Positions 28,105-59,941 of a DNA stretch of 64,000 nt are shown piece by piece. A program made the translations under genes and the position numbers. How positions within the stretch are numbered: position 1 is the stretch's first letter; each line of letters begins with the position of its first letter. Source of the DNA: Burkholderiaceae bacterium (lineage in GTDB: Bacteria > Pseudomonadota > Gammaproteobacteria > Burkholderiales > Burkholderiaceae_C); the NCBI GenBank assembly GCA_017992055.1, contig JAGOPK010000010.1, forward strand, positions 1 to 64,000, in the 5' to 3' direction. The notes below the pieces were generated by a model. The model saw only the letters and a list, made by a program, of their open reading frames with translations, was not told the DNA's origin and searched no databases.

Positions 28105-30915
28105 TTACCGCACCCACACAATGGCGCTGCGGCCGGGCACGGCCAGGCGGCCGTCGGCCAGGCTGGCCTCGCGGCGCAGCCGCGCATCGGCGGCACCGGG
28201 CGCGGCCAGCACCGGGTGCAGGCGCCAGGGGCCGCCGCCACGCAACGCATCGACGGCCAGCGTCTGCGCCTCGGGATGGGCATTCAGCACCAGCAGCAGG
28301 CCCTGCCAGCGCGCGCCGGGCAGGCCGCGGCCATCGAGCTCGGCCACGATCAGTGCGGGATTGGACTGCGGCCCGGCGCCATGGAAGCGCAGCCGCTGCT
28401 GCACCTGCTCGGCCGTGGTCAGGCGCAGCAGCCTGGTGCTGGCGCGCACCGCCAGCCAGTCGCGCAGGGCCTGGCGGGCGTAGGCGATGTCGGCCGGCGT
28501 GGCGCGCAACGCGGGGTCGCGCAGCCGCGGCGCCATCAGGCCATGCAGGCCGGCGTTGTCGCGGGCCGGCGGCAGGCCGCTGCCGAAGTGGTGCTGCTGG
28601 CCGCTCCAGTCCAGGCGGTTGAACCAGTCGCCCGAGTCGTAGCTGTTGCCGTCCATGCTCTTGCTGCGCAGCAGGTCGATGCCGGCATGGAAGTAGGGCA
28701 CGCCCTGGCTCAGCGCGGTCAGCGCCATGCCCAGCACCTGGGCGCGGGCGCGCTCGCTGGACGGCGTGGCCAGCGGCAGCTTGAAGGCATGCAGGTCCCA
28801 CAGCGTGGCGTTGTCGTGGTTCTCCACGTAATTGACCACCTCGTCGGGCTGCTGGGCATAACCGGCGCCGGGCTGGCCGGCATACACCAGCTCGGCGCCC
28901 GGGCGCGGCCGGCCGTCGGCATCGGGCACCTTCACCGTGGCCAGCGTGCCGGCCAGGCCCAGGCGGATCAGGGCCGCCGCCTCTTGGGCCTGGCGCTGCT
29001 GCGCGGCCTGGCCTTCAGCCGGCAGGCGCTGGCTGGCCTCGTTGGGCGCCACGCCCAGGCCGTTGAGCCAGCCCTGGCGGCTGATCACCGCCTCGCCGGC
29101 ATCGCCGAAGCCGCCGCCGCGCGCCGCGTCGCGCGCACGGTCGCTGAAGGTGGCGATGCCGCTGCCGCCCAGCCGGCCCTGGGCGGCCTGCACGAAGCGC
29201 GCGCCGTCGGCCACCTCGCCGAAGTTCCAGCCCTCGCCGATCAGCTGGATGTCGCGGCCGTTGTCGGCGCGCAGCTGCGCCTTCAGCGCCAGCATGGCCT
29301 CGCGCGGCTGGTGGCCCATCAGGTCGAAGCGGAACGAGTCGATGCGGTACTGGCGCGCCCACAGGCGCACGCTGTCGCTCATCAGCCGGGCCATCATGCG
29401 GTGCTCGGTGGCGCTGTTGTCGCAGCAGGTGCTGCGCTCGACCTCGCCGTTGGCATTGAGCCGGTGGTAGTAGCCGGGCACGATGCGGTCCAGCACCGAC
29501 TGGGGATGCTGGCCGCTGGCCGACAAATGGTTGTAGACCACGTCCATGCCCACGCGCAGGCCCGCCGCATGCAGGGCCATGACCATCTGGCGGAACTCGC
29601 GGATGCGCATGGCGCCGTCCGACGCATCGCTGGCATAGCTGCCCTCGGGCGCGTTGAAGTGCAGCGGGTCGTAGCCCCAGTTGAAGCAGTCGCTGGCGGC
29701 CTGGGCCACCACCGCGGCCTGCTGGGCCAGGCTGTCGGGCGCGGCCTGCGGCACCTGGGGTGTGCTGCAGCCCTGCTCGGGCACGCTGGCCAGGTCGAAC
29801 ACCGGCAGCAGGTGCACATCGCTCAGGCCGGCGCGGGCCAGCGCGCGCAGATGGGCCATGCCCTGGCTGCGGCTTTGCGTGAAGGCCGCGTACTTGCCGC
29901 GCTGGGCGGCGGGCACGCTGGCATCGTCGCGCGAGAAGTCGCGCACATGCAGCTCGTAGATGGCCATGTCCACATTGCTGCGCAGCGGCGCCGGGCGCCG
30001 GGCCTGGGCCCAGCCGGGCGGTGCCAGGCGCACATCGTCCAGGTGGCCGATCCAGCTGCGGTGCGAATCGGCGCCCAGGCTGATGCTGTAGGGGTCGCTG
30101 ACACGCTGGCGCACCCGGCCCTGGCCGGGCACCCAGACCTCGACCAGATAGCGGTAGTAGCGGCCGCGCAGATCACCCGGCAGCCGGGCCTGCCAGAAGC
30201 CGCTGCCGGCCACCGCCTGCAGCGGCTGCACGCTGCGCGCCGCGGCCTGGTCGTCGTCGTACAGACACAGGGCCACGGCGCGGGCGGTGGGCGCCCACAG
30301 CGTGGCCGTGGTGGCATGCGGCGCGCGCAGCGTGGGCACGCTGCCCAGGCTCAGCGGCGCGCTCTGGTCGGCGGCATAGAGGTCGTCCAGCGCACCGGCG
30401 ATCTGCAGCCGCGTGGCCTGCAGCACCTGGCCGGCCGCATCCTCCAGCACCAGCAGCTGCTGGCCGCGGTGCAGCACGGCCAGACGCTCGGGCGTGGCGG
30501 CCTCGGCCGGCAGCTGCCAGCGCGCGCCGGGCCGCAGGTGCGCAAAGCGCGTGGCCAGCGGCGGCGGCAGCGCATCGGTCCAGGCCTGGAGTTCCAGCGC
30601 ATGGTCAAAGCCGCTGGCCGGCGCGCCGGGCTGGGCGCGGATCGTCGGCGCCTCGGCCAGCAGCAGGCGGGCGCGGCCGCCGGCGGGCACCTCCCGCCCG
30701 GGCCACTGCAGGCGCCGGCGGTCCAGCCAGATGCCCTGCGCCGCCGGCAGCGCCTGGGCCTCGGCCTGCAGCAGCGTGGCCCAGGCCGGACCATCGCAGG
30801 CGGCGCGCAGTTCGGCCCCGCCCTGGGCCTGGACCCACAGCGGTAGGCACAGCAGGGCCGTAGCAAAACTACCAGCCAAACGGCCGAAGCAGCCAGTCTT
30901 CTTCGTTGACTTCAT
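28105..30915 (-). CDS. pulA: secreted pullulanase-type alpha-1,6-glucosidase (GH13)
   Basis: The 936-residue enzyme debranches pullulan and starch-derived dextrins. A signal peptide (cleavage after WVQAQ, about residue 31) is followed by an accessory N-terminal region, a CBM48-like beta domain (about 195-300, LWAPTARAVALCLYDDD), and a catalytic TIM barrel. The type I pullulanase signature appears as FNWGYDPLHF. Catalytic residues are aspartate 531 (FRFDLMGH), glutamate 561 (LIGEGWNFGE) and aspartate 701 (VENHDNATL). Two HexR-like operators flank its start, one inside the signal-peptide coding region. It is divergent from another GH13 gene. Confidence 0.95.
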   Translation of the reverse strand: MKSTKKTGCFGRLAGSFATALLCLPLWVQAQGGAELRAACDGPAWATLLQAEAQALPAAQGIWLDRRRLQWPGREVPAGGRARLLLAEAPTIRAQPGAPASGFDHALELQAWTDALPPPLATRFAHLRPGARWQLPAEAATPERLAVLHRGQQLLVLEDAAGQVLQATRLQIAGALDDLYAADQSAPLSLGSVPTLRAPHATTATLWAPTARAVALCLYDDDQAAARSVQPLQAVAGSGFWQARLPGDLRGRYYRYLVEVWVPGQGRVRQRVSDPYSISLGADSHRSWIGHLDDVRLAPPGWAQARRPAPLRSNVDMAIYELHVRDFSRDDASVPAAQRGKYAAFTQSRSQGMAHLRALARAGLSDVHLLPVFDLASVPEQGCSTPQVPQAAPDSLAQQAAVVAQAASDCFNWGYDPLHFNAPEGSYASDASDGAMRIREFRQMVMALHAAGLRVGMDVVYNHLSASGQHPQSVLDRIVPGYYHRLNANGEVERSTCCDNSATEHRMMARLMSDSVRLWARQYRIDSFRFDLMGHQPREAMLALKAQLRADNGRDIQLIGEGWNFGEVADGARFVQAAQGRLGGSGIATFSDRARDAARGGGFGDAGEAVISRQGWLNGLGVAPNEASQRLPAEGQAAQQRQAQEAAALIRLGLAGTLATVKVPDADGRPRPGAELVYAGQPGAGYAQQPDEVVNYVENHDNATLWDLHAFKLPLATPSSERARAQVLGMALTALSQGVPYFHAGIDLLRSKSMDGNSYDSGDWFNRLDWSGQQHHFGSGLPPARDNAGLHGLMAPRLRDPALRATPADIAYARQALRDWLAVRASTRLLRLTTAEQVQQRLRFHGAGPQSNPALIVAELDGRGLPGARWQGLLLVLNAHPEAQTLAVDALRGGGPWRLHPVLAAPGAADARLRREASLADGRLAVPGRSAIVWVR
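30860..30872. promoter_or_regulatory. HexR-like operator 1 (inside pulA 5' coding region)
   Basis: GTAG-CAAAA-CTAC lies 43 bp into the pullulanase coding sequence. The same 13-mer recurs at 59812-59824 next to the glucokinase-hexR gene. A site inside the gene could act as a roadblock. Confidence 0.55.
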
Positions 30916-30957
30916 GAGGGAATCCGCGGTGCAGCAGCCGGAAAGCAGTTGCTAAAG

Positions 30958-30972
30958 TGTAGTTTCACTACG
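30958..30972. promoter_or_regulatory. HexR-like operator 2 (pulA/GH13 divergent region)
   Basis: TGTAG-TTTCA-CTACG matches the repeated TGTAG-N5-CTACA palindrome with one outer-base mismatch. It lies in the 72-bp gap between the divergent starts of pullulanase and the 30988 GH13 gene. Confidence 0.7.
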
Positions 30973-30987
30973 AATACAGGTCTCTCC

Positions 30988-32716
30988 ATGGCACTACCGA
31001 TGCGCCAGCGGCTTTGCCACGGGCTGGGCGCCGCCCTGCTGGCCCTGGCCACCACCGGCCCGGCCCCGGCCGCCCAGGCCGTCCAGGGCGCCCAAGCCGG
31101 CGCGATGCCCGACACCCGCCCGGTGCCGCAGCGCGCCGACCGCCTGCCGCCGCTGCCGGCGCACTGGGAGCGCGGCGTGTTCATGGAGATCTTCGTGCGC
31201 GCCTATGCCGACAGCGATGGCGACGGCATCGGCGATCTGCGCGGCCTGATCTCGCGGCTGGACTACCTGGCCGACCTGGGTGTGCGTGGCCTGTGGCTGA
31301 TGCCCATCACCGCCAGCGCCGACCGCGACCATGGCTATGCCACCGTGGACCACCGTGCCATCGAGCGCGACTACGGCACGCTGGCCGACCTGGACGAGCT
31401 GCTGCGCCAGGCGCGGCGCCGCGGCATCGGGGTGATCATCGACTACGTGGTCAACCATGCGGCGGCCGACCACCCCTGGTTCCGCGCCGCGCGCGAGGAT
31501 ACGTCCAGCCCCTGGCGCGACTGGTTCGTCTGGGCCGATGCCAGGCCCGAGGGCTGGGACATCTGGGGCGTGGACCCCTGGTACCACCTGGCCAGCGCGC
31601 CCTGGACCTACAAGGGCGACCTGAAAGCCATGCCCAGGCCAGAAAGCCAGGCCCGCGGCTTCTATTTCGCCACCTTCGGGCCGCACATGCCCGACTTCAA
31701 CCTGCGCCACGGCCCGGCGCTGCGCTACCACCAGGACAGCCTGCGCTTCTGGCTCAACCGCGGCATTGCCGGCTTCCGCCTCGACGCCGTGCCGCACCTG
31801 GTGGAAAACAGCGCGCAGGACTGGAACGACCAGCCCGAGAGCCGGGCCATGACCAAGGCGCTGACCGACCTGATCCGCCGCTATCCGCGCCGCATGGCGG
31901 TGTGCGAGGCCACGGCCCAGCCGCAGGCCTGGGGCGATCCGGCGGTGTGCGGCGGTGCCTTCGCCTTCGGCCATGTGCAGCACCATGTGGGCGCGGCCCT
32001 GGGCCGGGCCGAATCGGTGCAGGCCCTGGCCGACTACCACCGCACGGCACGGCCAACCATGGCCGGCTTCGTCTCCAACCACGACCGCTTTGCCGGACTG
32101 CGCCTGTGGGACCAGGTGGCCGGCGACGACACCGCCTACCGCCTGGCCGCGGCCAGCTACCTGCTGCAGCCGGGCACGCCCTATGTCTACTACGGCGAGG
32201 AGATCGGCCAGGCCGGCCTGGCCGATGCCGACAACCGCCTGGGCGACCGGCCGCTGCGCGCACCGATGAGCTGGAGCGCCGACGAGCGCACGGCCGGCTT
32301 CACCACCGGCACGCCGTTCCGCGAGCTGTCGCCCAACCGCGCCACGCACAACGCACAAGCCCAGCGCGCCGATCCGGGATCGCTGCATGCGCACTACAAG
32401 GCCTTGATCGGCCTGCGCAACCGCTGGCCGTCGATCGCCCGCGGCAGCTTCGAGCACAGCTTTGCCGACGGCCTGGTGCTGGGCTTCCAGCGCGCGCTGC
32501 CGGGCGAGCGCACGCTGGTGCTGATCAACTACGGCGCCGAGGCCGCCCGCGTGCAGGTGCCCGGGCTGGCAGAGGGCATGCGGCTTCAGCCGCTGTTCGG
32601 CGCCGAGGCTTTGCCGCAGCCTCGGCCGGCGCCCGCACCGGGCCAGGCCTGGACCCTGGCGCCACGGACGGCCCAGGTCTGGCGGCTGCTGCCGCCGCGG
32701 CAGCCGGGCTCACGGC

Positions 32717-32739
<23 letters not shown>
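30988..32739 (+). CDS. exported GH13 alpha-amylase-family glucosidase
   Basis: The 583-residue protein has an N-terminal signal peptide (about residues 5-30, ending near APAAQA) and a complete (beta/alpha)8 catalytic domain. Catalytic residues are aspartate 266 (FRLDAVPH), glutamate 307 (AVCEATAQP) and aspartate 366 (SNHDRF). The start of the barrel ([20 protein letters not shown]) carries the D-x-D-G-D-G-I-G-D calcium/substrate loop of oligo-1,6-glucosidase, trehalulose-type and maltogenic enzymes. Precise linkage is uncertain. It is divergent from pullulanase and shares its HexR-like operator region. ATG 31000 is an alternative start. Confidence 0.9.
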
Positions 32740-33810
<1,071 letters not shown>

Positions 33811-33814
<4 letters not shown>

Positions 33815-34509: not shown

Positions 34510-34525
34510 GGCGATGCGGCCGGCC

Positions 34526-35287: not shown

Positions 35288-35318
35288 CGTTTTCTCCAGA
35301 TCAATGGGACGGCTGGCC

Positions 35319-36164: not shown

Positions 36165-36200
36165 GGTCGGGCGGCGCGCGCTTGTCGGGAACACGACAAT

Positions 36201-36224: not shown

Positions 36225-36237
36225 CAATCCACATGCC

Positions 36238-36767: not shown

Positions 36768-38318
36768 TCAGTACGAGGCCGGCGGCGCGTGCTTGGCCGG
36801 CACGCCGATGCCCAGCAGCGCAAAGTCGCCGCGGCCGCTGGCGGCCGTCAGCAGGCCCAGCACACGGCCCGGCTCGTCGCCGATCATCGGCCAGTCGAAG
36901 CGCCAGCTCCAGTTGGCATCGCCCAGCGTGCCCGGCGTGTTCATGCGGTGCTCGCTGCCCAGGCCCAGCACGTCCTGCAGCGGAAACACCGCCAGGTTGG
37001 CCACCGAATTGAGCGCGGCGCGGATCATGGCCCAGTGCACATCGTGGGCGCCGCAGGCCAGGTAGGTGCCGGCAAAGCGCCGCTCGCGCTCGGCCGCCGC
37101 ATCCCACCAGCCGCGCGCGGTGTCGTTGTCGTGGGTGCCGGTGTAGACCACCACGTCGCGGCGCCAGGTGTGGGGCAGGAACTCGTGCTCGCCGTCGCCA
37201 CCAAAGGCGAACTGCAGGATCTTCATGCCCGGATAGCCCAGCGCGTCGCGCAGCTGGTGCACGTCCGGCGTGATGAAGCCCAGGTCCTCGGCGACGATGG
37301 GCAGCGCGCCCAGGGCCCGCGAGATGGCGTCGAACAGCGGCTGGCCCGGGCCCTTCTTCCACTGGCCGGTCTGGGCATCGGGGCTCTCGGCCGGGATCTC
37401 GTAATAGCCGGCAAAGCCGCGGAAGTGGTCGATGCGGAAGGCATCGGCCTGGTGCAGCATGCGGCGCACGCGCGCCGTCCACCAGGCCCAGTCCTCGACG
37501 GCCATGCGCTCCCAGCGGTACATGGGGTTGCCCCAGCGCTGGCCCAGCGGGCCCAGGTCGTCGGGCGGCACGCCGGCCACCACGGTGGGCTGGCAGTCAT
37601 CGTCCAGCAGGTACAGGTCGGGCCGGGCCCAGCAGTCGGCGCTGTGGTGGGCGACGAAGATCGGCAGGTCGCCGAGGATGTGCACGCCCTTGGCATTGGC
37701 ATGGGCCTTCAGCGCCGTGCACTGGCTGTCGAAGCACCATTGCACAAAGGTCCAGAAAGCGATCTCGTCGGCCAGCTCGCGCCGCGCCGCGGCCAGCGCC
37801 GCCGGCTCGCGCCCGCGCAGCGGTGCCGGCCACAGCCACCAGGGCTGGCCGGCCTGGGCGGTTTCCAGCGCCATGAACAGCACGTAGTCGTCCAGCCAGT
37901 CGGCATTGGCCGCGGCCCAGGCCGCCAGGCTGGCGCGCTGGGCCGGCGTGGCCCGGGCGCCGTAGCCGGCAAAGGCCAAGCGCAGCTGGGCCATGCGCCA
38001 GGGCACGACGGCGCAGAAGTCCACCCGCGTGGCATCGAAGCCGCCGGGCGGCAGCTCGGGCGCGGGCAGCCAGCCCTGCTCGACCAGCGGCTCCAGCGCC
38101 ACCATCAGCGGGCTGCCGGCAAAGGCCGAGACGCTCTGGTAGGGCGAGTTGCCGGGGCCGATGGGCGTGGTCGGCAGCCACTGCCACAGGCGCTGGCCGC
38201 AGCCGGCCAGCCAGTCGACGAAATGGTGGGCCGCGGGGCCGAAGTCGCCGATGCCGTGCGGGCCGGGCAGCGAGGTGATGTGCAGCAGCACACCGGAGGC
38301 GCGTTGGTTCAGGTTCAT
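36768..38318 (-). CDS. malQ: 4-alpha-glucanotransferase (amylomaltase)
   Basis: MalQ disproportionates maltodextrins, releasing glucose and lengthening chains for phosphorolysis. The 516-residue product is GH77: early SGVLLHITSLPGPHGIGDFG, substrate loop WLPTTPIGPGNSPYQ, the nucleophile in AFRIDHFRGF, acid/base in LPIVAEDLGF and third aspartate in YTGTHDNDT. ATG 38318 overlaps the glgX stop (ATGA). It is last in the glgP-glgB-glgX-malQ run. Confidence 0.97.
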   Translation of the reverse strand: MNLNQRASGVLLHITSLPGPHGIGDFGPAAHHFVDWLAGCGQRLWQWLPTTPIGPGNSPYQSVSAFAGSPLMVALEPLVEQGWLPAPELPPGGFDATRVDFCAVVPWRMAQLRLAFAGYGARATPAQRASLAAWAAANADWLDDYVLFMALETAQAGQPWWLWPAPLRGREPAALAAARRELADEIAFWTFVQWCFDSQCTALKAHANAKGVHILGDLPIFVAHHSADCWARPDLYLLDDDCQPTVVAGVPPDDLGPLGQRWGNPMYRWERMAVEDWAWWTARVRRMLHQADAFRIDHFRGFAGYYEIPAESPDAQTGQWKKGPGQPLFDAISRALGALPIVAEDLGFITPDVHQLRDALGYPGMKILQFAFGGDGEHEFLPHTWRRDVVVYTGTHDNDTARGWWDAAAERERRFAGTYLACGAHDVHWAMIRAALNSVANLAVFPLQDVLGLGSEHRMNTPGTLGDANWSWRFDWPMIGDEPGRVLGLLTAASGRGDFALLGIGVPAKHAPPASY

Positions 38319-40483
38319 GGGGCGGCGTCGAGGGTCTCTTTGAACACCAGCAGCGACTGCGCCGGCACACGCAGCACGCCGCCGGCCGGCACGGACAGGC
38401 CGGGCGCGAGGTCGAGCGAAGAATCCAGCGCCAGCTGCCAGCCGCTGTGCGGCGTGCCATGCGGCGCCGGCAGCGTGAACGGCTGGGCCTGGGCCTCCGG
38501 GTTGAAGCACAGCAGCAGCGCATGGCGGCCGGGACTGGCCACGGTGCCACGGTCCTGGCCATTGATGCGGCAGGCCAGGGCCTGCTGCTGGCCGTCGTGC
38601 CAGTCGTGCACCTGCATGTCCTGGCCCGAGGGCGCAAACCAGTTCAGCGTGCGCTCCAGCGCACTGCCGCCGCTGCCCGGGCGCGACTGGGACTGGAACC
38701 AGCGGTCGTGGTGCAGGCCGGGCTCGGCGGCACGCAGCGCGGCCAGCGCGGCGACAAAGCCGATCTGCGCCTCGTCGGCGCGCGCCCAGTCCAGCCAGCC
38801 GGTGGGGTTGTCCTGGCAATAGGCGTTGTTGTTGCCGCCCTGGCTGTTGCCGAACTCGTCGCCGGCGCCCAGCATCGGCGTGCCCTGGGCCAGCATCAGC
38901 GTGGCCAGCAGGGCGCGGCGCACGCGGCCGCGCAGGGCCAGGATGGCGGCGTCGCCGGTGTCGCCCTCGATGCCGAAGTGGGCCGCCGGCTCGTCGTTGC
39001 GGCCGTCGCGGTTGTCCTCGCCATTGGCCTGGTTGTGCTTGCGGCTGTAGGACGTGACATCGGCCAGCGTGAAGCCGTCGTGCACCGACACGAAGTTGAC
39101 GCTGGACGAGGGCCGGCGCTGGCCGTGGTGGAACAGGTCGGAGCTGGCGGTGAAGCGGCGCGCAAACTCGCCGCGGCTGACGCCCATGCCGTTGGCCCGG
39201 CCCAGCCAGTAGCGGCGCACGGTGTCGCGGAACTTGTCGTTCCATTCCAGCCAGCGTCCCGGAAAGCGGCCCACCTGGTAGCCGTCGGCCGCGGCATCCC
39301 AGGGCTCGGCGATCAGGTGCACGCCGCTGAGCACGGGGTCCTGCTTCAGCGCGGTGAAAAACGCCGCATGCGGATCGAAGCCGTGGCGGGTGCGGCCCAG
39401 CACCGGCGCCAGGTCGAAGCGGAAGCCGTCGACACCGTATTCCTGCACCCAGCAGCGCAGCGAGTCGAGCACAAACTGCGCCACCCGCGGATGCGAGACA
39501 TGCACGGTATTGCCACAGCCGGTGAGGTTCTCGCAGCGGCCCAGGTCACCGGGCACCAGGCGATACCAGCTGGCATGGTCGAGGCCGCGGAAGCTGATGC
39601 TGGGCCCGGTCTCGCCACCTTCGGCCGTGTGGTTGTAGACCACGTCCAGCACCACCTCCAGGCCATGCTGATGCAGCGTGGCCACCATCTGGCGGAACTC
39701 CTCGGCCACCGCCGTGGGATCGTCGGGCCGCTGCGCATAACGCGGATCGGGCGCGAAGAAACCCAGCGTGTTGTAGCCCCAGTAGTTGACCGCGCCGCGC
39801 GTGGCCAGGTGCGGCTCGTCCAGGTGGTAGTGCACCGGCAGCAGGCTCAGCGTGGTCACGCCCAGGCGCTTGAAGTGGGCGATGGCCGCCGGATGCGCCA
39901 GGCCGGCATAGCTGCCGCGCAGCGCCTCGGGGATGCCCGGGTGCTGCATGGTGAAGCCCTTGACATGCAGCTCGTACAGCACCAGGTCGGCATTGGCCAC
40001 ACGCGGCGCATTCAGCCGGCCCGGCGCCGTGGTCGGCGGCGGCGCCACGCGGGCCTTCAGCGCATGCACGGCGTTGTCGCGCAGGTCCAGCGAGCGCATG
40101 CCGTCCGGGTGGCCCATCTCATAGCCATGGTGCTCGGTCATCCAGCGCCAGCGGCCGACGATCTCGCGCGCGCAGGGGTCGAGCAGCAGCTTGTGCGGAT
40201 TGAAGCGGTGGCCATGCTCGGGCTGCTGCGGACCGTGGGCGCGCAGGCCGTAGACCAGGCCGGGCCCGACGCCGGGCAAAAAGCCATGCCACAGGCCGTC
40301 GTGCGGGCCGTGCAGCGCATAGCGCTTCAGCTCGCGCGTGCCGTCGGCATCGAACAGGCACAGCTCGATGCGCTGGGCATGCTGGGAGAACACGCAGAAG
40401 TTGACGCCGCCGTCGCGGGCCAGCGAGCCCATGGGCTCGGCGCGGCCTTCTTGCAGCTGTTCGGGCAGGGTGGAGCGCATCAT
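38315..40483 (-). CDS. glgX: glycogen debranching enzyme GlgX (GH13)
   Basis: GlgX hydrolyses alpha-1,6 branches of limit dextrins left by phosphorylase. The 722-residue protein has an N-terminal CBM48 domain ([19 protein letters not shown]), then [13 protein letters not shown], and GH13 residues in [22 protein letters not shown] and [10 protein letters not shown]. The early [19 protein letters not shown] motif is typical of GlgX/TreX. Its start overlaps the glgB stop (ATGA), with a second ATG directly after. Confidence 0.96.
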
Positions 40484-42723: not shown

Positions 42724-42752
42724 CGGCCGCAGTGTGCCCGCATCCGCCGCCG

Positions 42753-45280: not shown

Positions 45281-45295
45281 TGTAGTTATCCTACA
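45281..45295. promoter_or_regulatory. HexR-like operator 3 (upstream of glgP)
   Basis: TGTAG-TTATC-CTACA is a perfect match to the repeated palindrome arms. It is in the 335-bp glgP-malK divergent region, 60 bp from the glgP start. The rest of this region (45222-45556) holds the malK promoter and no gene. Confidence 0.8.
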
Positions 45296-45370: not shown

Positions 45371-45399
45371 TTGTCACGCGACGGCATGGCCTGTATATT
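45371..45399 (+). promoter_or_regulatory. sigma-70 promoter of the malK-malE-malF-malG operon
   Basis: TTGTCA (45371-45376), a 17-bp spacer and TATATT (45394-45399) form a good promoter pointing to malK, giving a 5' leader of about 150 nt. The HexR-like palindrome at 45392-45406 covers the -10 box and probable start point, a position suited to repression. Confidence 0.8.
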
Positions 45400-45406
45400 C
45401 TCTACA
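45392..45406. promoter_or_regulatory. HexR-like operator 4 (over the malK -10 box)
   Basis: TGTAT-ATTCT-CTACA matches nine of the ten arm positions of the repeated palindrome. It overlaps the -10 box of the malK promoter. Confidence 0.7.
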
Positions 45407-45556: not shown

Positions 45557-46683
<1,127 letters not shown>

Positions 46684-46687
<4 letters not shown>

Positions 46688-47913
46688 CGGGCCGCAGCAT
46701 GCGCGGCCTGCCGGGCCTGCGGGCCGCTGTCGCCACGGCCGCGCTGGCCGCAACGGCCCTGACCAGCCTGACGCCCCTGACGGCCGCCGCCACGCCGGAA
46801 CCACCCCAGCGCCTGCTGGTCTGGATCAACGGCGACAAGGGCTACAACGGCCTGCAGCGCATCGGCGATGCCTTCAGCCGCGTTTCCGGCGTGCCGGTGG
46901 TGGTGCAGCATCCCGAGGGTGCGCCGGACAAGTTCCAGGCCGCCGCCGGCGCCGGCAAGGGGCCGGACATCTTCTGCTGGCCGCACGACCGTGTCGGCGA
47001 GTGGGCCAAGTCGGGCCTGATCGTGCCGCTGCGGCCGTCGAAGGCGGTGCGCGAGGCCATCGAGCCGGCGGCCTGGCAGGCCTTCAGCTGGCGCGGCAAG
47101 GTCTGGGGCTATCCGCTGTCCTTCGAGGCCATCGGCCTGATCGTCAACCGCAGGCTGGTCGAGGTGCCGCCGGCACGCTTCGAGGACCTGCCGGCGCTGG
47201 ACGCCCAGCTCAAGGCCCGCGGCGCCCGCGCCATCCTGTGGGACTACAACAAGAGCTTCTTCAGCTGGCCGATGCTGGCCGCGGCCGGCGGCCAGATCTT
47301 CGGCCAGGGCGCCGGCGGCGAGTACGACACGTCCCAGGTCGGCGTCAACAATGACGGCGCGCTGGCCGGCGCCACGCTGCTGCGCCAGCTGATCGACGGC
47401 GGCACGCTGCCACGCGGCGCGCGCTATTCCGACATGGAATCGCAGTTCGCCGCCGGCAAGGTGGCGATGATGATCTCCGGCCCCTGGGCCTGGGACAACG
47501 CGCGCAAGAGCGGCATCGACTTCATGGTCGCGCCCATCCCGTCGGTGCAGGGCCGGCCGGCCCAGCCCTTCGTCGGCGTGCTGGGCTGCATGGTCACCGC
47601 GCCCAGCCGGCAGAAGGACATCGCGCGCGAGTTCCTGGAGCAGCATGTGCTGAGCCTGCAGGGCCTGAAGACCATCGCCGCCGACGTGCCGCTGGGCACG
47701 CCGGCCAACAAGGCCTATTACGCCGAGCTGGCGGCCGACCCGCTGATCCGCGCCACCATGGCCAATGTGCGCGCCGGACGCGCCATTCCCAACATCCCCG
47801 AGGTCGGCCGCTTCTGGCCGGCGCTGGATGCCGCGCTGGAAGCCCTGACCCAGGGCCGGCAGACGCCCAAGGAGGCGCTGGACGGCGCCGCCGCACGGAT
47901 GCTGGCCAAATGA
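46684..47913 (+). CDS. malE: maltose/maltodextrin-binding periplasmic protein
   Basis: The 409-residue protein has a signal peptide (cleavage around LTAAATP, residue 35-38). The mature start closely follows E. coli Mal[19 protein letters not shown], then [37 protein letters not shown] and [10 protein letters not shown]. It captures maltose and maltodextrins in the periplasm. ATGA overlaps with malK upstream and malF downstream indicate tightly coupled expression. Confidence 0.96.
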
Positions 47914-49436
47914 AGCCCGTGCTGCACTGGGGCCTCACCGGCCTGGCCACGCTGGGCCTGCTGTGGACGGTGATGCGCACCCACGCCGCCGGCCAGCCGC
48001 TGTGGGCCGTGGCCCTGCTGGCCTTTGGCGCGCTGGCGATCTGGATCTATGCCAGCGCGCGCAGCCTGGCCTGGAAGTACCTGCTGCCCGGCGTGGCCGG
48101 CATGCTGGTGTTCGTGGCCTTTCCGCTGCTGTACACGGTGCAGATCGGCTTCAGCAACTACTCGTCGGCCCATCTGCTCAGCGAGGACCGCGCCCGCGCC
48201 TACCTGCTGGAGCAGACCGAGGTCGACGAGGCCAGCCTGCGCGGCTTTGCCCTGCACCGCGACGGCGCCGCGCTGCGCCTGGTGCTGGCGCCGCCGGCCG
48301 AAGGCCCGGACAGCGCCGGCCCGGCCCTGGTGTCGCCGCCGCTGGACCTGGCACGCGGCGCGCCCGCCACGCCGGTGGCGATGGCCGCCGGCAGCGCGCC
48401 GGCCGGCCCGGTGCTGACGCTGCGCGAGGTGATCGCGCTGCGGCCAGCGCTGCAGGCCCTGGTGCTGCAGCTGCCCGAGGGCAAGCCGCTGGCCTATGCC
48501 GGCCTGCGCGAGTTCGGCCGCGTGCAGCCGCTGTGGACGGCCCAGGCCGACGGCAGCCTGGTGCAGGCCGCCACCGCCGAGCGTTATGCGCCCGACCACC
48601 AGCGCGGCTTCTTCGCCAATGCCCGCGGCGAGGCGCTGACGCCCGGCTTCAAGGTTGGCGTGGGCTGGGCCAACTACCAGCGCATGCTGTTCGATGCCGA
48701 CTTCCGCGGCCCCTTCGTCAGCATCTTCGTCTGGACCGTCAGCTTCGCGGCGCTGACGGTGCTGTTCTCCACCGCGCTGGGCCTGGCGCTGGCGGTGGCG
48801 CTGAACTGGGAGGGCCTGCGCTACCGCACGCTGTACCGCACGCTGCTGTTCCTGCCCTATGCGGTGCCGGGCTTCATCTCCATCCTGGTGTTCAAGGGCC
48901 TGTTCAACCAGAACTTCGGCGAGATCAATGCCATCCTCGATGCGCTGTTCGGCATCCGCCCGGCCTGGTTTGCCGATCCGCTGCTGGCCAAGGCCATGCT
49001 GCTGATCGTCAACACCTGGCTGGGCTATCCGTACATCATGGTGCTGGCCACCGGCCTGATCAAGGCCATCCCGGCCGACCTGTACGAGGCCTCGGCCATC
49101 GCCGGCGCCGGCCCCTGGACCAACTTCCGCCGCATCACCGCGCCGCTGATCGCCAAGCCGCTGGCGCCGCTGCTGATCAGCGCCTTCGCCTTCAACTTCA
49201 ACAACTTCGTGCTCATCAGCCTGCTCACCGACGGCCGGCCCGACTACCTGAACACCAAGCTGCCGGCGGGCACCACCGACATCCTGGTCAGCTACACCTA
49301 CCGCATCGCCTTCACCGACGCCGGCCAGAACTTCGGCCTGGCGGCGGCGATCTCGACGCTGATCTTCGGCATGGTGGCGCTGATGGCGCTGCTGCAGCTG
49401 CGCTTCATGCGTGGCTCGGAACAAGGCAAAACCTGA
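47910..49436 (+). CDS. malF: maltose ABC transporter permease MalF
   Basis: The 508-residue inner-membrane protein is about the size of E. coli MalF (514). It has two N-terminal spans, a third near 65-82, a large periplasmic P2-like loop (about 90-250), and the permease core with the EAA motif [22 protein letters not shown] contacting MalK. It makes the pore with MalG. It overlaps malE by 4 bp. Confidence 0.96.
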
Positions 49437-49437
49437 C

Positions 49438-50328
49438 ATGGCCCTGGTCACCGGCAAGAACCAGCGCTGGCGCGTGCTGGCCCTGCACCTGGCGCTGTGG
49501 GCGCTGATCGCGGTCACGCTGTTTCCGCTGCTGGCGGTGCTGTCGATCTCGCTGCGGCCCGGCAACTTCGCCACCGGCTCGCTGATCCCCACGCAGATCA
49601 GCTGGGAGCACTGGCAGCTGGCGCTGGGCTTCACGGTCACGCGGCCCGACGGCACGCTGGTGCCGCCGCCGTTTCCGGTGCTGCTGTGGCTGTGGAACTC
49701 GATCAAGATCGCCACCGCCAGCGCGCTGCTGATCGTGGCCATCTCCACCACCGCGGCCTATGCCTTTGCGCGGCTGAAGTTCGCGCGCAAGCAGAGCATC
49801 CTGAACAGCCTGCTGCTGCTGCAGATGTTTCCGGTGGCGGTGGCCCTGGTGGCGGTGTATGCCATCTTCGAGACCCTGGGCCAGGCCGTGCCGGCGCTGG
49901 GCGTCGAGACCCATGCCGGCCTGGTGCTGGCCTATTGCGGCGGCGTGGCCACCCACATCTGGACCATCAAGGGCTACTTCGACACCATCCCGGTGGAGAT
50001 CGAGGAGAACGCCAAGGTCGACGGCGCCACGCACTGGCAGGCCTTCCGCCGCGTGCTGCTGCCGATGGCCCTGCCCATCCTGGTGGTGGTGTTCGTGCTG
50101 GCCTTCATCGGCACCATCATCGAGTACCCGATCGCCAGCGTGCTGCTGCGCGAGGAGCCCAATCTGACGCTGGCCGTGGGCAGCAAGTTCTACCTCTACG
50201 AGCAGAAGTACCTGTGGGGCGACTTCGCCGCCGCGGCGGTGCTGTCGGGCCTGCCGATCACGCTGGTGTTCCTGGCCGCGCAGCGCTGGATCGTCTCCGG
50301 GCTGACCGCCGGCGGCGTCAAGGGATGA
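49438..50328 (+). CDS. malG: maltose ABC transporter permease MalG
   Basis: The 296-residue permease has six spans and the EAA motif [22 protein letters not shown]. The periplasmic segment after TM1 and the [20 protein letters not shown] start of the core match MalG. The C-terminal end (TAGGVKG) is the conserved G-x-V-K-G tail that inserts into the MalF/MalE interface in E. coli. It follows malF by 1 bp and precedes the GH13 gene by 4 bp. Confidence 0.96.
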
Positions 50329-50332
50329 GGCG

Positions 50333-51931
50333 ATGAAGCTGCGCACCCTGCTGGCCGCTCTGGCCGCCGCCACCGGCCTGACCGCCACCGCCCAACCCGT
50401 CGCGACCCCCATGCCTCTTGCCAACCGACACGACCAGGCCGTCGCCGGCCGCTATGCCCAGCGCGAGGCCGACTGGCGCAACGGCGCCGTGGTCTACCAG
50501 GTGCTGGTCGACCGCTTCGCGCCCAGCGCCGACCTGCCGGCCAAGCGCCACCTGTACCCGGCGCCCAAGACCCTGCGCGCCTGGACCGACGAGCCGCGCC
50601 AGGGCCGCTACCTGGAGCGCGAAAAGCTCTGGAGCCACGAGATCGACTTTTGGGGCGGCGACCTGGCCAGCACCGCGTCCCGGCTCGACCATGTGCAGCA
50701 GCTGGGCGCCGACGTGCTGTACCTGAACCCCATCGTGCTGGCCACCACCAACCACAAGTACGACGCGCTGGACTATCTGCAGATCTCGCCCGAATACGGC
50801 ACGCGCGAGGACCTGCGGCGCCTGGGTGCCGCGGCCAGGGCGCGTGGCCTGAAGCTGGTGCTGGACGGCGTGTTCAACCACATGGGCCGCAACTCGCCCA
50901 AGTACCGCGCGGCCGAGGCCGGCGACGCCACCTACAAGGACTGGTTCGTCTTCGGCCCGCAGTACCAGGGCGGCACGCGCACCTGGTGGAATGCGCAGAA
51001 CCTGCCCGAGCTGAACCTGGAGAACCCGGCCGTGCGCCAGCACCTCTGGGAAGCGCCCGACTCAGTGGTGCGCAGCTATCTGCGCGACGGCGCCGACGGC
51101 TGGCGCCTGGACGTGGCCTTCGACATCGGCTTCAAGCACCTGCAGGCGCTGACCGACGCCGTCCATGCCGAGAAGCCCGGCTCGCTGGTGGTGGGCGAGA
51201 TCCCCAACTACCCGCGCGAGTGGTTTCCGTCGGTGGATGGCGTGATGCACTTCGGCCTGCGCAAGCTGCTGATCGCGCTGGCCCGCGGCGAGCTGGACGG
51301 CGCCAGCTTCCAGCGCCTGGTGTCGCGCATGATCGGCGATGCCGACTACGAGCACCTGCTCAAGAGCTGGGTCTACCTCGACAACCACGACACGCCGCGG
51401 CTGGCCACGGCGATCCCCCAGCCGGCCGCGCGCCGCCTGGCCCAGGTGCTGCAGTTCACCCTGCCCGGCAGCGTCAACCTGTACTACGGCAGCGAGGTCG
51501 GCATGGAGGGCGACGACGACCCCGAGATGCGCGGGGCCATGCGCTGGGACCGCGTGGCCGCCGGCCATCCCGAGCTGGCCTGGACCCAGCAGCTGGTGGC
51601 GCTGCGCAAGAAGCATCGCGCGCTGCGCGTGGGCGACTTCCGCACGCTGGAGGCCAGCGGCAACGTCATCGCCTTCCAGCGCCACACCGACCGCGTGGCC
51701 GACTCGGTGCTGGTGCTGGTCAACCCGTCCGGCAGCGAGCAGCGCAGCACGGTGCTGGTCACCGATTCCAAGCTGATGGATGGCGAGACCCTGGTCGACG
51801 TGCTCGGCGGCCGCGCCTTCAGCCTGCAGGGCGCGCTGCTGCAGACCACGCTGCCGCCGCAGTCGGCCTTTGTGCTGACGCCGCGGCTGGCCACGCCGGG
51901 CGGCTACAGCAACTTCAAGCGCGTGCAGTGA
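50333..51931 (+). CDS. exported GH13 amylase/neopullulanase-type enzyme
   Basis: The 532-residue protein has a signal peptide (cleavage after TATAQ, about residue 21) and a GH13 barrel beginning VVYQVLVDRFAPS. Catalytic residues are aspartate 260 (WRLDVAF), glutamate 289 (VVGEIPN) and aspartate 353 (DNHDTPR). It lacks the N-terminal domain of cytoplasmic maltogenic amylases. Exact product specificity is unknown. It is in the malKEFG operon; its stop is shared with the GTG start of the next GH13 gene. The periplasm is its likely place of action, trimming dextrins before MalE. Confidence 0.92.
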   Translation: MKLRTLLAALAAATGLTATAQPVATPMPLANRHDQAVAGRYAQREADWRNGAVVYQVLVDRFAPSADLPAKRHLYPAPKTLRAWTDEPRQGRYLEREKLWSHEIDFWGGDLASTASRLDHVQQLGADVLYLNPIVLATTNHKYDALDYLQISPEYGTREDLRRLGAAARARGLKLVLDGVFNHMGRNSPKYRAAEAGDATYKDWFVFGPQYQGGTRTWWNAQNLPELNLENPAVRQHLWEAPDSVVRSYLRDGADGWRLDVAFDIGFKHLQALTDAVHAEKPGSLVVGEIPNYPREWFPSVDGVMHFGLRKLLIALARGELDGASFQRLVSRMIGDADYEHLLKSWVYLDNHDTPRLATAIPQPAARRLAQVLQFTLPGSVNLYYGSEVGMEGDDDPEMRGAMRWDRVAAGHPELAWTQQLVALRKKHRALRVGDFRTLEASGNVIAFQRHTDRVADSVLVLVNPSGSEQRSTVLVTDSKLMDGETLVDVLGGRAFSLQGALLQTTLPPQSAFVLTPRLATPGGYSNFKRVQ

Positions 51932-55526: not shown

Positions 55527-58253
55527 TCAGAAGCGGTAGCTGGCCTGCAGCGCGTAGTTCTTGCCGTACTTGGCCGACGACGAGATCTCCTGCGCACCGT
55601 CGGCATTCAGGCGGTACTTCTGGAAGGTGGCGTCGGTCAGGTTGTTGACCTGGAACACCAGCGACAGGCCGGCCACCGGACCGGACCTGAACTCGTAGCC
55701 CATCTGGAAGTCGACGATGGTCTCGCCCTTGATGTAGGTGAGCTTGCGTTCGTACTCGTTGGTGGTGAACTCGCCGATGAAGTCGGAGCGGTCACGCACG
55801 CCGACGCGGGCCGAGAAGCCGTCCTTCTCGTAGTAGGCGCTGAGGTTGGTGACGCGCTTGGACAGGCCGGGCAGGCCCATGCGCGTGGCGCCGCCGCCGA
55901 TGGAGTTGGGAATGTCCACCGAGCTGTGCGTGTCGGAGTAGTTCACGTACAGGCCAAAGCCGGCCAGGCTGGGCGACAGCAGGTCCAGCGGCACATTGGC
56001 GGTCAGCTCGAAGCCCGAGATGTTGCCGCCCTTGCCGTTTTTCGGGCCCGAGTAGTCCAGCGTCGGATAGCCGCTCAGGCCGTACTTGCTGGACAGGATG
56101 TCGCTCTTGAACGACTCCTGGTAGATGAAGGTGTCGAGCTTGCGGTAGAAGCCGGCCGCGCCCACGTAGGCACGCTTGCCGAAGTACTTCTCGTAGCCCA
56201 GGTCCAGCGTGGTGGCGCGGAACGGGTCCAGCTGCGGATTGCCGCCGCTGCCGCTGTGGTTGCCGCTGCAGCTCTTGGGGTTGCTGGCCGGCGACCAGCA
56301 TTCGTAGATGGCATTGGCGCGCATGTCGCGCATGGTCGGCCGGGCCAGCATCTTGCCCATGCCGAAGCGCGCGATCTGGTCGTTGCCCAGTTCGAAGGTC
56401 AGGTTCAGGCTGGGCAGCACGTCGTTGTAGGACTTGCTGCCGCTCTGCTGCACCGTCTCCTTGACCACGTAGACATTGGGGCCGCCGTTGACGTCGTCCC
56501 AGGTGGCCACGGTGGCGTCGTTGAGGCCGCGCGAGCTCTGCTCGGTCTTGACGAACTGCACGCCCAGGTTGCCGCGCACCGGCACGCCGGCCAGCTTGCT
56601 GTCGATGTCGAGCTTGGCAAAGGTGTTCAGCACCTTCTCCTCGACCTTCCAGTTCTTCATGATCGCCCAGGTCTGGTCGCCCATGTCGGTGTACTGGTAG
56701 ACGGTGTCGATCAGCGCCAGCGAATCCCAGCCCAGGATCTGGATGTCCGACAGGCCGGCACGGATCGGCGAGGCATTGGGCAGCTTGGCGCTGTTGGCAC
56801 CCGACTTGAAGCTCAGCGAGCCCTCGGTCATGCCCAGGGTCTTGCTGCGGTTGGAGTAGTGCGCGCCAACGGTGAAGCCGTTGAAGTAGGCGTTGTCCAG
56901 GCCGCGGCTCAGGCTCAGGCGCAGCGTGTCCATCTTGTCGTCGATGCTGGGCTTCTTCAGCCAGCCCTTGCCCCAGGGCGTGTCGCCCAGCAGCAGGGTG
57001 TTGGCATCGGTCAGGTTGCCGCTGAACGAGAAGGCCGGGATGCTGCCGCGGCTGTCGAAGCTCAGCGAGCCGGTGCTGCCGGTGACGGCATTGGAGTCGA
57101 TCGCCGTTTCCTTGCGCTTGCTCTTGGAATGCGCCAGGTCGACGATGGCCGACCAGCCGTCGGCCAGCGTGAAGCGGTTGTTCCAGCCCAGCGCCAGGTT
57201 CTCGTCCTCCTGGCGGTTGCCGATGGTCTGCACGATGCCGGTGACGCCGGAGATGGTGCCGGCCACGGCCACGCCGTTGACGAGGGTGGCGTTGCTCAGC
57301 GTGCCGTTGTTGAAGTTGGGGAAGGCCACCTGGTGCTTCAGCGAGGTGCGCTCGGTGGTCGAGGCCAGCAGGTCCAGCGTGGTGCTGTAGCTCTTGCTGG
57401 GCTTGATCTCGACCACGGCCATCACGCCGTCGCGGGTGTATTCGCTGCGGCTGGTGGCCTGGGTCACGCTCTTCTGGAACGGCAGCTTGGTGCCGTCGGA
57501 GAAGGTGCCGCTGTCGTCGAAGCTGTTGACCTCGCGCCCGGTGTTGTCACCGGTCTTGCGCGACACGCCCAGGGCCACGCCGATGGTCTTGTTGAACTGG
57601 TCGATGTACGAGAAGCTGAAGTTGTCGCCCTTGCCGCGCGGCGGCTGGCCCACGTTGTTGACCTGGCGGCCATAGCCCAGCATCAGCTTACGGCCATCGA
57701 AGCTCAGCGGACGCACGGTCTGCAGGTCGATGGTGCCCGAGATGCCCTGGCCCATCAGGCTGGCGTCGGGGGTCTTGTACAGCACCACGCCGCTGAGCAG
57801 CTCGGACGGGTAGGCGTCGAACTCCACGCCGCGGCCATCGCCCGGGTTGACCTGCTCGCGGCCGTTGAGCAGCGTGGTCGCAAAGTCCGGCGGCATGCCG
57901 CGCACGCTGACCTGGCTGGCGCGGCCGTCGCCGCTGCGCTGCGCGGCCACGCCGGGCAGGCGGGCGATCGAGTCGGCGATGCTCACGTCGGGCAGCTTGC
58001 CCAGGTCTTCGGCCGAGATGGCCTCGACCACGCCGTCGGCGTTTTTCTTCACCGAGATGGCGCTCTCGATGGCGCGGCGGATGCCGGTGACCACCACCTC
58101 CTGCGCCGGCGCTGCGGCCTGCTGGGCCAGGGCCAGCTCGCTGGCGCCAGCGCCCAGCAGCAGCACGCAGCCCACGGCCACCGGCCGCAGCCCGCAACGG
58201 AGAGGGGAAACGCGGCCGGCGGACCGCGCACGCTGGATGGATCGGCTCTTCAT
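55527..58253 (-). CDS. TonB-dependent receptor, MalA-type (maltodextrin uptake likely)
   Basis: The 908-residue outer-membrane receptor has a signal peptide (cleavage near LALAQQ, residue 44), a TonB-box-like EVVVTGIRRAIESA, and the plug domain (VVEAISAEDLGKLPDVSIADSIARLPGV), the pattern of the Xanthomonas/Caulobacter TIGR01782 group that includes Caulobacter MalA. A long 22-strand barrel ends in aromatic YRF. A strong AGGAG site precedes ATG 58253. Ligand assignment rests on context: HexR-like operators upstream, glucokinase genes next door and the mal genes. No LamB-type porin is present. Confidence 0.92.
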   Translation of the reverse strand: MKSRSIQRARSAGRVSPLRCGLRPVAVGCVLLLGAGASELALAQQAAAPAQEVVVTGIRRAIESAISVKKNADGVVEAISAEDLGKLPDVSIADSIARLPGVAAQRSGDGRASQVSVRGMPPDFATTLLNGREQVNPGDGRGVEFDAYPSELLSGVVLYKTPDASLMGQGISGTIDLQTVRPLSFDGRKLMLGYGRQVNNVGQPPRGKGDNFSFSYIDQFNKTIGVALGVSRKTGDNTGREVNSFDDSGTFSDGTKLPFQKSVTQATSRSEYTRDGVMAVVEIKPSKSYSTTLDLLASTTERTSLKHQVAFPNFNNGTLSNATLVNGVAVAGTISGVTGIVQTIGNRQEDENLALGWNNRFTLADGWSAIVDLAHSKSKRKETAIDSNAVTGSTGSLSFDSRGSIPAFSFSGNLTDANTLLLGDTPWGKGWLKKPSIDDKMDTLRLSLSRGLDNAYFNGFTVGAHYSNRSKTLGMTEGSLSFKSGANSAKLPNASPIRAGLSDIQILGWDSLALIDTVYQYTDMGDQTWAIMKNWKVEEKVLNTFAKLDIDSKLAGVPVRGNLGVQFVKTEQSSRGLNDATVATWDDVNGGPNVYVVKETVQQSGSKSYNDVLPSLNLTFELGNDQIARFGMGKMLARPTMRDMRANAIYECWSPASNPKSCSGNHSGSGGNPQLDPFRATTLDLGYEKYFGKRAYVGAAGFYRKLDTFIYQESFKSDILSSKYGLSGYPTLDYSGPKNGKGGNISGFELTANVPLDLLSPSLAGFGLYVNYSDTHSSVDIPNSIGGGATRMGLPGLSKRVTNLSAYYEKDGFSARVGVRDRSDFIGEFTTNEYERKLTYIKGETIVDFQMGYEFRSGPVAGLSLVFQVNNLTDATFQKYRLNADGAQEISSSAKYGKNYALQASYRF

Positions 58254-58355: not shown

Positions 58356-58370
58356 TGTACTAAAACTAGA
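58356..58370. promoter_or_regulatory. HexR-like operator 5 (weak, upstream of the receptor)
   Basis: TGTAC-TAAAA-CTAGA matches eight of ten palindrome arm positions, 103 bp upstream of the receptor start. It is the most degenerate copy. The 377-bp gap 58254-58630 otherwise holds operator 6 and no gene. Confidence 0.4.
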
Positions 58371-58508: not shown

Positions 58509-58523
58509 TGTAGGCGTACTACA
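58509..58523. promoter_or_regulatory. HexR-like operator 6 (between receptor and glucokinase)
   Basis: TGTAG-GCGTA-CTACA has perfect arms, extended to ATGTAG/CTACAT. It is in the gap between the TonB-dependent receptor and the upstream glucokinase. Confidence 0.8.
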
Positions 58524-58630
58524 TGATCGACGGATCCATTGCCCTGTCCTGGGGCCAGAACGACGCCCAGGCTGGCGCCGGCCCGGCGATCGGGCCCTGC
58601 GAGAGGCGAGGGAGGGACGGGAGCGGACGC

Positions 58631-59692: not shown

Positions 59693-59810
59693 GTTGGATG
59701 CGTCTCGAGGGCAAGGAGAAGGCAGGGCCGGCCCGCCGATGGGCCAGGCCAGCAACCCCCGGGCCAGCTTGGCATGGGCCATGCCAACAGCCCGGCCGGG
59801 GCGCGCGGAA

Positions 59811-59825
59811 GGTAGCAAAACTACA
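59811..59825. promoter_or_regulatory. HexR-like operator 7 (glk/glk-hexR divergent region)
   Basis: GGTAG-CAAAA-CTACA matches the repeated palindrome with one outer mismatch; its inner 13-mer equals operator 1 exactly. It is 119 bp upstream of the stand-alone glucokinase start. Confidence 0.75.
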
Positions 59826-59926
59826 GCGCGCCGTCCAGCCGCAGCTTCCCCAATGCGGTGCGCTGGGGCTTCGCCCTTCCCTCGTGTGGGGCGGGCCGCA
59901 GCCGCGCATCCAAGGGGAAGCGCCGA

Positions 59927-59941
59927 TGTAGTCAGGCTACA
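59927..59941. promoter_or_regulatory. HexR-like operator 8 (autoregulatory, ahead of glk-hexR)
   Basis: TGTAG-TCAGG-CTACA has perfect arms and lies 50 bp before ATG 59991. It is placed for autoregulation of the fusion gene. The 298-bp gap 59693-59990 contains this site and operator 7 and no gene. Confidence 0.8.

What the first reader, a model, noticed from the sequence alone, without database searches (positions are those of the whole stretch)
30860..59941. A paired 15-bp palindrome marks every promoter region of the alpha-glucan cluster: a likely HexR glucan regulon
TGTAG-N5-CTACA (seen directly) occurs at 30860, 30958, 45281, 45392, 58356 (weak), 58509, 59811 and 59927. These fall as one pair in each of four promoter regions: pulA/GH13, glgP/malK, TonB receptor/glk, and glk/glk-hexR. 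I found none elsewhere in the window. The motif resembles the HexR operator described in proteobacteria (from memory, TGTARTWWWACTACA-like). HexR is known for Entner-Doudoroff and central carbon genes; control of a whole starch-to-glucose-6-phosphate system, by a regulator fused to glucokinase, would be an expansion. One copy covers the malK -10 box. Pair spacings centre to centre are about 99, 111, 153 and 116 bp.
Basis: partly seen in the sequence, partly recalled or inferred. Interest (0 to 1): 0.8.

Follow-up and report, generated by a model that had tools for sequence, protein, structure and literature searches.

The report
Paired switches for a starch regulon
A short, mostly paired DNA sign marks the starch-eating genes of this bacterium and almost nothing else in its genome; comparison with relatives suggests that it is read by a sugar kinase fused to a gene regulator, which leaves glucose breakdown to a sister regulator and may itself have become a glucose sensor.

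Summary
GTAG-N5-CTAC occurs 7 times in the 5.9-Mb genome, 6 of them in this cluster. Of 150 family genomes, 30 carry a Glk-HexR fusion and average 6.3 sites; 76 with only a stand-alone HexR average 2.7. Relatives repeat the sites at glk/glk-hexR, TonB receptor, pulA/GH13 and glgP/malK.

The "HexR expansion" is only partly right. A second, stand-alone HexR sits beside zwf, with a different likely operator (GTAA-N5-TTAC) at zwf, edd and ppc: two paralogues, two operators, two regulons. The fusion's operator equals the published 15-bp site of Pseudomonas RccR, but the fusion lacks most KDPG contacts. In most fusions the kinase phosphate-1 motif is changed too, while glucose contacts stay in 40 of 40. 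Most likely it is a repressor of alpha-glucan uptake and breakdown; glucose sensing through the kinase domain is a bold, untested reading.

The parts
30859..30873 (.). operator CGTAGCAAAACTACC, inside the 5' codons of pulA
   Evidence: matrix score 18.2; AGTAGCAAAACTACA at pulA in 7 of 12 relatives' pulA/GH13 regions scanned
30958..30972 (.). operator TGTAGTTTCACTACG, centre 23 nt before the GH13 start
   Evidence: score 22.0
45281..45295 (.). operator TGTAGTTATCCTACA, centre 67 nt before the glgP start
   Evidence: score 23.7; site at glgP/malK in 15 relatives' loci
45392..45406 (.). weak operator TGTATATTCTCTACA over a -10-like TATATT, centre 158 nt before malK
   Evidence: score 4.9, background; but TGTATATT-type copies 110-111 bp from the strong site in 8 of 15 relatives and in Ideonella
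58356..58370 (.). weak element TGTACTAAAACTAGA, centre 110 nt before the TonB receptor start
   Evidence: score 12.8; same or near copy in 17 of 18 relatives' receptor promoters
58509..58523 (.). operator TGTAGGCGTACTACA, centre 263 nt before the TonB receptor start
   Evidence: score 18.1; a site scoring 18.9 or more in 17 of 18 relatives
59811..59825 (.). operator GGTAGCAAAACTACA before glk
   Evidence: score 23.6; like sites between glk and glk-hexR in relatives
59927..59941 (.). operator TGTAGTCAGGCTACA, centre 12 nt before the likely start of glk-hexR
   Evidence: score 23.8; autoregulation inferred
59946..61883 (+). Glk-HexR fusion (glucokinase + RpiR HTH + SIS), the proposed regulator; start could also be 59991
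   Evidence: PF02685, PF01418, PF01380
58631..59692 (-). stand-alone glucokinase with intact GGTN and NDF motifs (start approximate)
55527..58253 (-). TonB-dependent receptor
45557..46687 (+). malK
46690..47913 (+). malE-like binding protein (start approximate)
47910..49436 (+). malF
49411..50328 (+). malG-type permease
50333..51931 (+). GH13 enzyme
42753..45221 (-). glycogen/maltodextrin phosphorylase glgP
40480..43455 (-). branching enzyme glgB (longest frame; true start lies further in)
38315..40798 (-). glgX-like debranching enzyme (longest frame)
28105..30915 (-). pulA, pullulanase-type enzyme
30988..32739 (+). GH13 alpha-amylase family enzyme

Best explanation
The palindromes are operators of the Glk-HexR fusion encoded beside them. 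They form a small regulon: outer-membrane import (TonB receptor), pullulanase and amylase, maltodextrin ABC transport, phosphorolysis, glucose phosphorylation, and the regulator itself. Supported by comparison: the sites, their target genes, their link to the fusion, and their separation from the Entner-Doudoroff genes, which carry another palindrome next to a stand-alone HexR. Inferred: the fusion binds the sites, acts as a repressor (sites over a -10 and at gene starts), and can grip two operators at once as an RpiR oligomer. Inferred and least certain: release is triggered through the glucokinase domain or the altered SIS pocket when alpha-glucan is broken down, not by KDPG.
For: 6 of 7 genome-wide GTAG-N5-CTAC sites in the cluster. 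Spacer of exactly 5: 52 sites in 29 fusion regions, at most 3 for each other spacer from 0 to 11. 30 fusion genomes: mean 6.27 sites, none with zero; 76 with stand-alone HexR only: 2.74; 44 with neither: 2.30; fusion versus stand-alone p=1e-8, stand-alone versus neither p=0.19. In a named collection 11 of 13 fusion loci hold the exact core, 0 of 17 loci without fusion do, though many of these come from other classes. Distal sites listed for 22 fusion genomes: 38 of 99 lie at or beside alpha-glucan, TonB-receptor or zwf genes. 30 MalK-like loci of non-fusion genomes hold no exact site. Where no second HexR was found (G140), zwf carries the G-type site; so does zwf in L037 and L040. All 12 zwf-hexR2 promoters examined have the A-type palindrome with at most one mismatch of 8.
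Against: No binding or expression data. 8 of 29 fusion regions have no exact site, one of them cut at a contig end. 61 of 99 distal sites lie elsewhere; 14 of these score 18 or more, for example before PHB depolymerase and tryptophan halogenase genes. Some genomes without the fusion have 11 to 19 sites (G112, G039, G113, G136, G031), unexplained. Spacing at glk/glk-hexR is not helically phased. The same operator is bound by RccR in Pseudomonas, so the operator alone does not name the protein.
Confidence: 0.85

Rival explanations
1. The stand-alone HexR (beside zwf) reads both palindromes, and the fusion is mainly an enzyme.
For: Both have an RpiR HTH with similar recognition helices.
Against: Genomes with only the stand-alone HexR show no excess of G-type sites over genomes with neither; G140 has the sites and no second HexR match; the 11 zwf-hexR2 regions hold 0 exact G-type and 6 exact A-type sites.
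Confidence: 0.06
2. Another regulator of the cluster (MarR at 61941, the LysR/ModE-like one at 35319, or one not recognised) binds the sites.
For: They are near in the window.
Against: No marR hit in the 29 fusion regions of relatives, while sites persist in 21 of them. The ModE-like gene lies 24 kb from the fusion in the window, beyond the reach of those regions, so it is judged only by its usual role (recalled).
Confidence: 0.04
3. It is a classical KDPG-responsive HexR regulon that has grown to include alpha-glucan genes.
For: HexR family domains; zwf carries G-type sites in L037, L040 and G140.
Against: In the own genome zwf, edd and ppc carry the other palindrome; KDPG contacts are mostly lost in the fusion and kept in the stand-alone HexR.
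Confidence: 0.1

Closest known systems
RccR of Pseudomonas (PMC5489143 and PMC10810197, passages seen; PDB 8K3B)
   Same: 15-bp operator TGTAGT-N3-ACTACA, used in two copies at aceE (68 bp apart); its two aceE sites score 26.7 and 29.5 of at most 30.8 on the matrix made here; RpiR fold.
   Different: RccR is not fused, governs aceEF and glyoxylate/gluconeogenesis genes and binds KDPG; the fusion lacks most KDPG contacts, and all fusions lie on one side of a branch of the tree, RccR on the other (96/87).
HexR of Proteobacteria (Leyn 2011 not held; passages of PMC5343134, PMC11906056, PMC3223726)
   Same: RpiR HTH plus SIS; sugar metabolism genes.
   Different: The Vibrio HexR motif TGTAATTAAATTACA scores 16.7 here; zwf and edd go with the other paralogue in this genome. 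PMC11906056 names glgX as a predicted HexR target in Vibrio, so a glycogen link is not wholly new.
PRK14101 bifunctional transcriptional regulator/glucokinase
   Same: Same domain order.
   Different: Score 793 against a cut-off of 920; phosphate-1 motif GGTY instead of GGTN; zwf-linked fusions L037, L040, L269 and L271 keep GGTN.
ROK repressors (kinase-fold sugar sensors with a DNA-binding domain; recalled)
   Same: Idea of a sugar-kinase fold turned sensor in a repressor; the fold search lists ROK repressor Lmo0178 far down (rank 32).
   Different: Here the kinase part is PF02685 glucokinase with no ROK hit, and the DNA-binding part is of RpiR type.

Membership tests
HexR | RpiR HTH plus SIS domain | tested here: met
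   PF01418 and PF01380
HexR | NCBIfam HexR cut-off (296 bits) | tested here: not met
   232.4 bits; the genome's stand-alone HexR is also below, 246
HexR | operator of the TGTAAT-N3-ATTACA type | tested here: not met
   G/C at position 5; the A-type lies at zwf, edd and ppc
HexR | control of zwf and edd-eda | tested here: not met
   no GTAG-N5-CTAC outside the cluster except one inside an ORF; zwf and edd carry the A-type
HexR | KDPG sensing | tested here: inconclusive
   contact residues mostly lost by sequence; no binding assay
RccR | 15-bp operator TGTAGT-N3-ACTACA | tested here: met
RccR | nine KDPG contacts | tested here: not met
   window: S139Y, H148F, H164R, S188L, no K270 counterpart; R152, S183, S185 kept; R277 lies beyond the reference letters used
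RccR | regulon of aceEF and glyoxylate genes, 28-bp sites | not tested
   only the 15-bp form was searched
PRK14101 bifunctional regulator/glucokinase | curated score of 920 bits | tested here: not met
   793.2
PRK14101 bifunctional regulator/glucokinase | working glucokinase | not testable with these tools
   catalytic Asp and glucose contacts kept, phosphate-1 Asn replaced by Tyr
ROK repressor | ROK family domain | tested here: not met
   only PF02685, PF01418, PF01380 and PF13580 found

The most novel reading that the evidence does not exclude
A glucokinase fused to an RpiR repressor has turned from enzyme plus KDPG sensor into a sensor of glucose or a related sugar. It lost the KDPG pocket and the intact phosphate-1 motif of the kinase, in one subclade also the catalytic aspartate, but kept the glucose contacts. 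An intact glucokinase beside it took over catalysis, a stand-alone HexR kept the Entner-Doudoroff genes, and the sensor took the alpha-glucan genes through paired, partly helix-phased operators: a second, independent invention of the ROK-repressor principle.
Probability: 0.4. Interest if true: 0.8.

Novelty: new variant of a known kind. Interest (0 to 1): 0.62.

Why it matters
It shows, within one family of bacteria, how two sister regulators may split one job: two operators that differ by one symmetric base pair, two sets of genes, and two different states of the ligand pocket. That makes the step from an enzyme to a sensor testable with purified proteins. It also helps to read starch use in Burkholderiales such as Ideonella, whose fusion is annotated only as glucokinase.

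Tried and rejected
Chance palindromes: rejected by genome count, spacer test and conservation. As letter-order controls, other arrangements of the same four letters with spacer 5 gave 0 to 38 sites in the fusion regions against 52; GATG-N5-CATC (38) and AGGT-N5-ACCT (19) are common words there. Classical HexR regulon: rejected for this genome by the second paralogue and its own palindrome. MarR: not seen beside the fusion in relatives. 45392 as noise: first taken so from the matrix, then reversed by its conserved spacing. General helical phasing: found only at pulA/GH13 (13 spacings, one resting on a weak site; R 0.82 at 10.7 bp; 0 of 5000 null draws); glk/glk-hexR (23 spacings, one of them before glk alone in L110) gave p 0.27, the TonB receptor (17) p 0.02; the spacings come from related genomes and are not independent. 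One-mismatch sites in the own genome: TGTAGYNNNRCTACA with up to one mismatch gave 30, 25 of them outside the cluster and not examined one by one. The 7th GTAG-N5-CTAC site is inside an ORF. Recognition-helix residues as the cause of operator choice: only a lead (the L275 fusion, with a GYDG helix like the stand-alone HexR, has three A-type sites; but E. coli HexR differs). Not all fusions off zwf have a changed phosphate-1 motif: L275 keeps GGTN and L044 has GATN. A tree-display call failed on names and was repeated; the tree joins the stand-alone HexRs with RccR and E. coli HexR on long branches, so that join is unsure. The structure model (mean pLDDT 73) served only to confirm the two folds. 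One search repeated an earlier Pfam scan by mistake.
Full report
Observation. Exact TGTAG-N5-CTACA holds at three; the others carry one or two mismatches. The exact palindrome occurs three times in the 5,895,641-base genome, all in this cluster. The core GTAG-N5-CTAC occurs seven times, six of them here, and the seventh lies inside an ORF. In 29 regions around the fusion in relatives (548 kb) the core occurs 52 times with spacer 5 and at most 3 times with any other spacer from 0 to 11; other arrangements of the same letters give 0 to 38. A matrix made from 83 sites of relatives, without the window, puts seven of the eight sites at ranks 1 to 7 in the window; 45392 scores at background.

What surrounds it. 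The window holds pulA, a GH13 enzyme, glgX-like, glgB and glgP genes, malK-malE-malF-malG, a second GH13, a TonB-dependent receptor, a stand-alone glucokinase and a glucokinase fused to a HexR-type regulator. A molybdate-transport and ModE-like set lies between, without strong sites. Site 30859 is inside the first codons of pulA; 45392 overlaps a TATATT that could be the malK -10; 59927 ends just before the likely start of the fusion.

Link to the fusion. Of 150 genomes of the family, the own one included, 30 carry the fusion by the match list. Their site count is 6.27 on average with none at zero; 76 genomes with only a stand-alone HexR have 2.74, and 44 with neither have 2.30. In a separate named collection, 11 of 13 fusion loci carry the exact core and 0 of 17 loci without fusion do, many of the latter from other classes. 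Around the fusion, L090 to L104 (15 of 15) have a site of the GTA[AG] type between glk and glk-hexR; L105, L106 and L109 do not. Of 18 TonB-receptor promoters scanned, 17 have a site scoring 18.9 or more. Sites outside the fusion region were asked for in 23 fusion genomes; G077 and two sites of G034 were not listed, and six further fusion genomes were not asked. All 99 listed were fetched: 16 lie at glgP/malK (15 loci), 15 at pulA with or without GH13 (13 loci), 7 at or beside zwf, malE, a TonB receptor or amylase-like genes, and 61 elsewhere, close to the background of about 2.6 per genome. The first three groups have A+T-rich spacers (0.76-0.79), the rest do not (0.41). These loci were found by their sites, so the counts say where sites lie, not how many such promoters lack one. 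In several genomes the modules lie on other contigs than the fusion (for example G062, G140). Of ten genes beside nine high-scoring sites of the rest, two are alpha-amylase-type and one ExbB-type; others are unrelated, such as PHB depolymerase and tryptophan halogenase. Of the 30 MalK-like loci held from 80 non-fusion genomes none has an exact site; only two of them show a malE-like neighbour, so this control is small.

Pairs. The two weak members are old. At glgP/malK, TGTATATT-type copies lie 110 or 111 bp from the strong site in 8 of 15 relatives, a variant in a ninth, and one in Ideonella dechloratans on a 709-kb plasmid, whose two sites there are both weak (12.5 and 14.8). Nine of the 15 have another second site at 87 to 90 bp, four of them in addition. 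At the TonB receptor TGTACTAAAACTAGA or a near copy is found in 17 of 18, in 11 of them 150-155 bp from the strong site (153 in the window). It may be a half-operator over a promoter element. At pulA/GH13 the 13 spacings fall into steps of about 10.7 bp (76-79, 86-89, 98-100, 119), a hint of looping or same-face binding; at glk/glk-hexR they do not.

The sister regulator. The genome holds a second HexR, unfused, beside zwf. Only four GTAA-N5-TTAC sites exist in the genome: before zwf-hexR, at the 5' end of edd with a KDPG aldolase behind it, at the 5' end of the PEP carboxylase gene, and near a UvrD-like gene. All 12 zwf-hexR2 promoters examined (the own and 11 of relatives) have this A-type site with at most one mismatch of 8, six of them exact. 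In G140, where no second HexR was found, and in L037 and L040, zwf carries the G-type site. Zwf-linked fusions (L269, L271) and unfused glk and hexR genes behind zwf (L272, L273, L274, L276, L277) exist in other families of the order. So the older state may be a zwf-linked pair that fused, and the G-type operator may be older than the alpha-glucan role; this is inference.

What the regulator may sense. Published RccR-KDPG contacts (PMC10810197, passages; structure 8K3B) are S139, H148, R152, H164, S183, S185, S188, K270, R277. The stand-alone HexR keeps the first seven in 12 of 12 (S188 is Thr in one), and a C-terminal Lys/Arg motif in 12 of 12. In 31 fusions of the window's clade, 139 is Tyr in 29, 148 is never His, 164 is Arg in 29 and His in one, 188 is never Ser, and the C-terminal motif is absent in all; R152 and S183 are kept in all. 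Nine deeper fusions are partly changed: seven keep S139 and H148. The model has no ordered C-terminal helix there. In the kinase domain, GGTN of the phosphate-1 motif is intact in 2 of 40 fusions (one unreadable), while 21 of 22 readable neighbouring stand-alone glucokinases keep GGTN or GGSN; the catalytic Asp is Asn in 6 of 40 fusions; N99, E157, H160 and E187 are kept in 40 of 40 (the roles of these residues are recalled). Zwf-linked fusions keep GGTN in 4 of 4 (L037, L040, L269, L271), but so does L275, where no zwf was seen in the short locus. This pattern fits a change from enzyme to sensor. It does not prove it: the catalytic Asp is still there in the window's protein.

Known and unknown. 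The operator equals the 15-bp RccR site (PMC5489143, passages). HexR motifs and regulons were seen in passages of PMC5343134, PMC3223726, PMC11906056, PMC3840689, PMC5507952, and related passages in PMC12568896, PMC4052901 and PMC8231600. Searches for HexR with betaproteobacteria and maltodextrin, with starch and pullulanase, with Comamonadaceae, with maltose and TonB, and for fused glucokinase with RpiR listed 0, 0, 1, 3 and 9 papers; I read passages of three of these and only the listing of the rest, and saw no such regulon. The main HexR paper (Leyn 2011), the RegPrecise pages and supplementary tables were not seen, so prior description cannot be excluded.

Verdict.

Noticed in passing
G000 C17:647028-649384 (L025): Stand-alone HexR beside zwf with its own A-type palindrome; the same site type at edd and PEP carboxylase.
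   Followed up: yes
L113-L118: Six fusions have the catalytic Asp of the glucokinase domain replaced by Asn while glucose contacts remain.
   Followed up: partly
L027 (C2:347445) and L181: Operator-like sites before a gene that looks like tonB by eye in the own genome (score 14.1) and beside an ExbB-type gene in a relative: perhaps energy supply for the receptor belongs to the regulon.
   Followed up: partly
window 32717-36497: Molybdate transport and ModE-like genes sit inside the alpha-glucan cluster, without strong operators.
   Followed up: no
window 61941-63823: MarR-type regulator and a GH1 enzyme follow the fusion; not seen beside it in the relatives' regions.
   Followed up: partly
L275: A fusion with a different recognition helix and three TGTAA-N5-TTACA sites before it.
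   Followed up: partly
G112, G039, G113, G136, G031: Genomes without the fusion but with 11 to 19 GTAG-N5-CTAC sites.
   Followed up: no
L279 (NZ_CP088082.1): Ideonella dechloratans carries the alpha-glucan cluster and fusion on a 709-kb plasmid; both glucokinase-type genes are annotated simply as glucokinase.
   Followed up: yes
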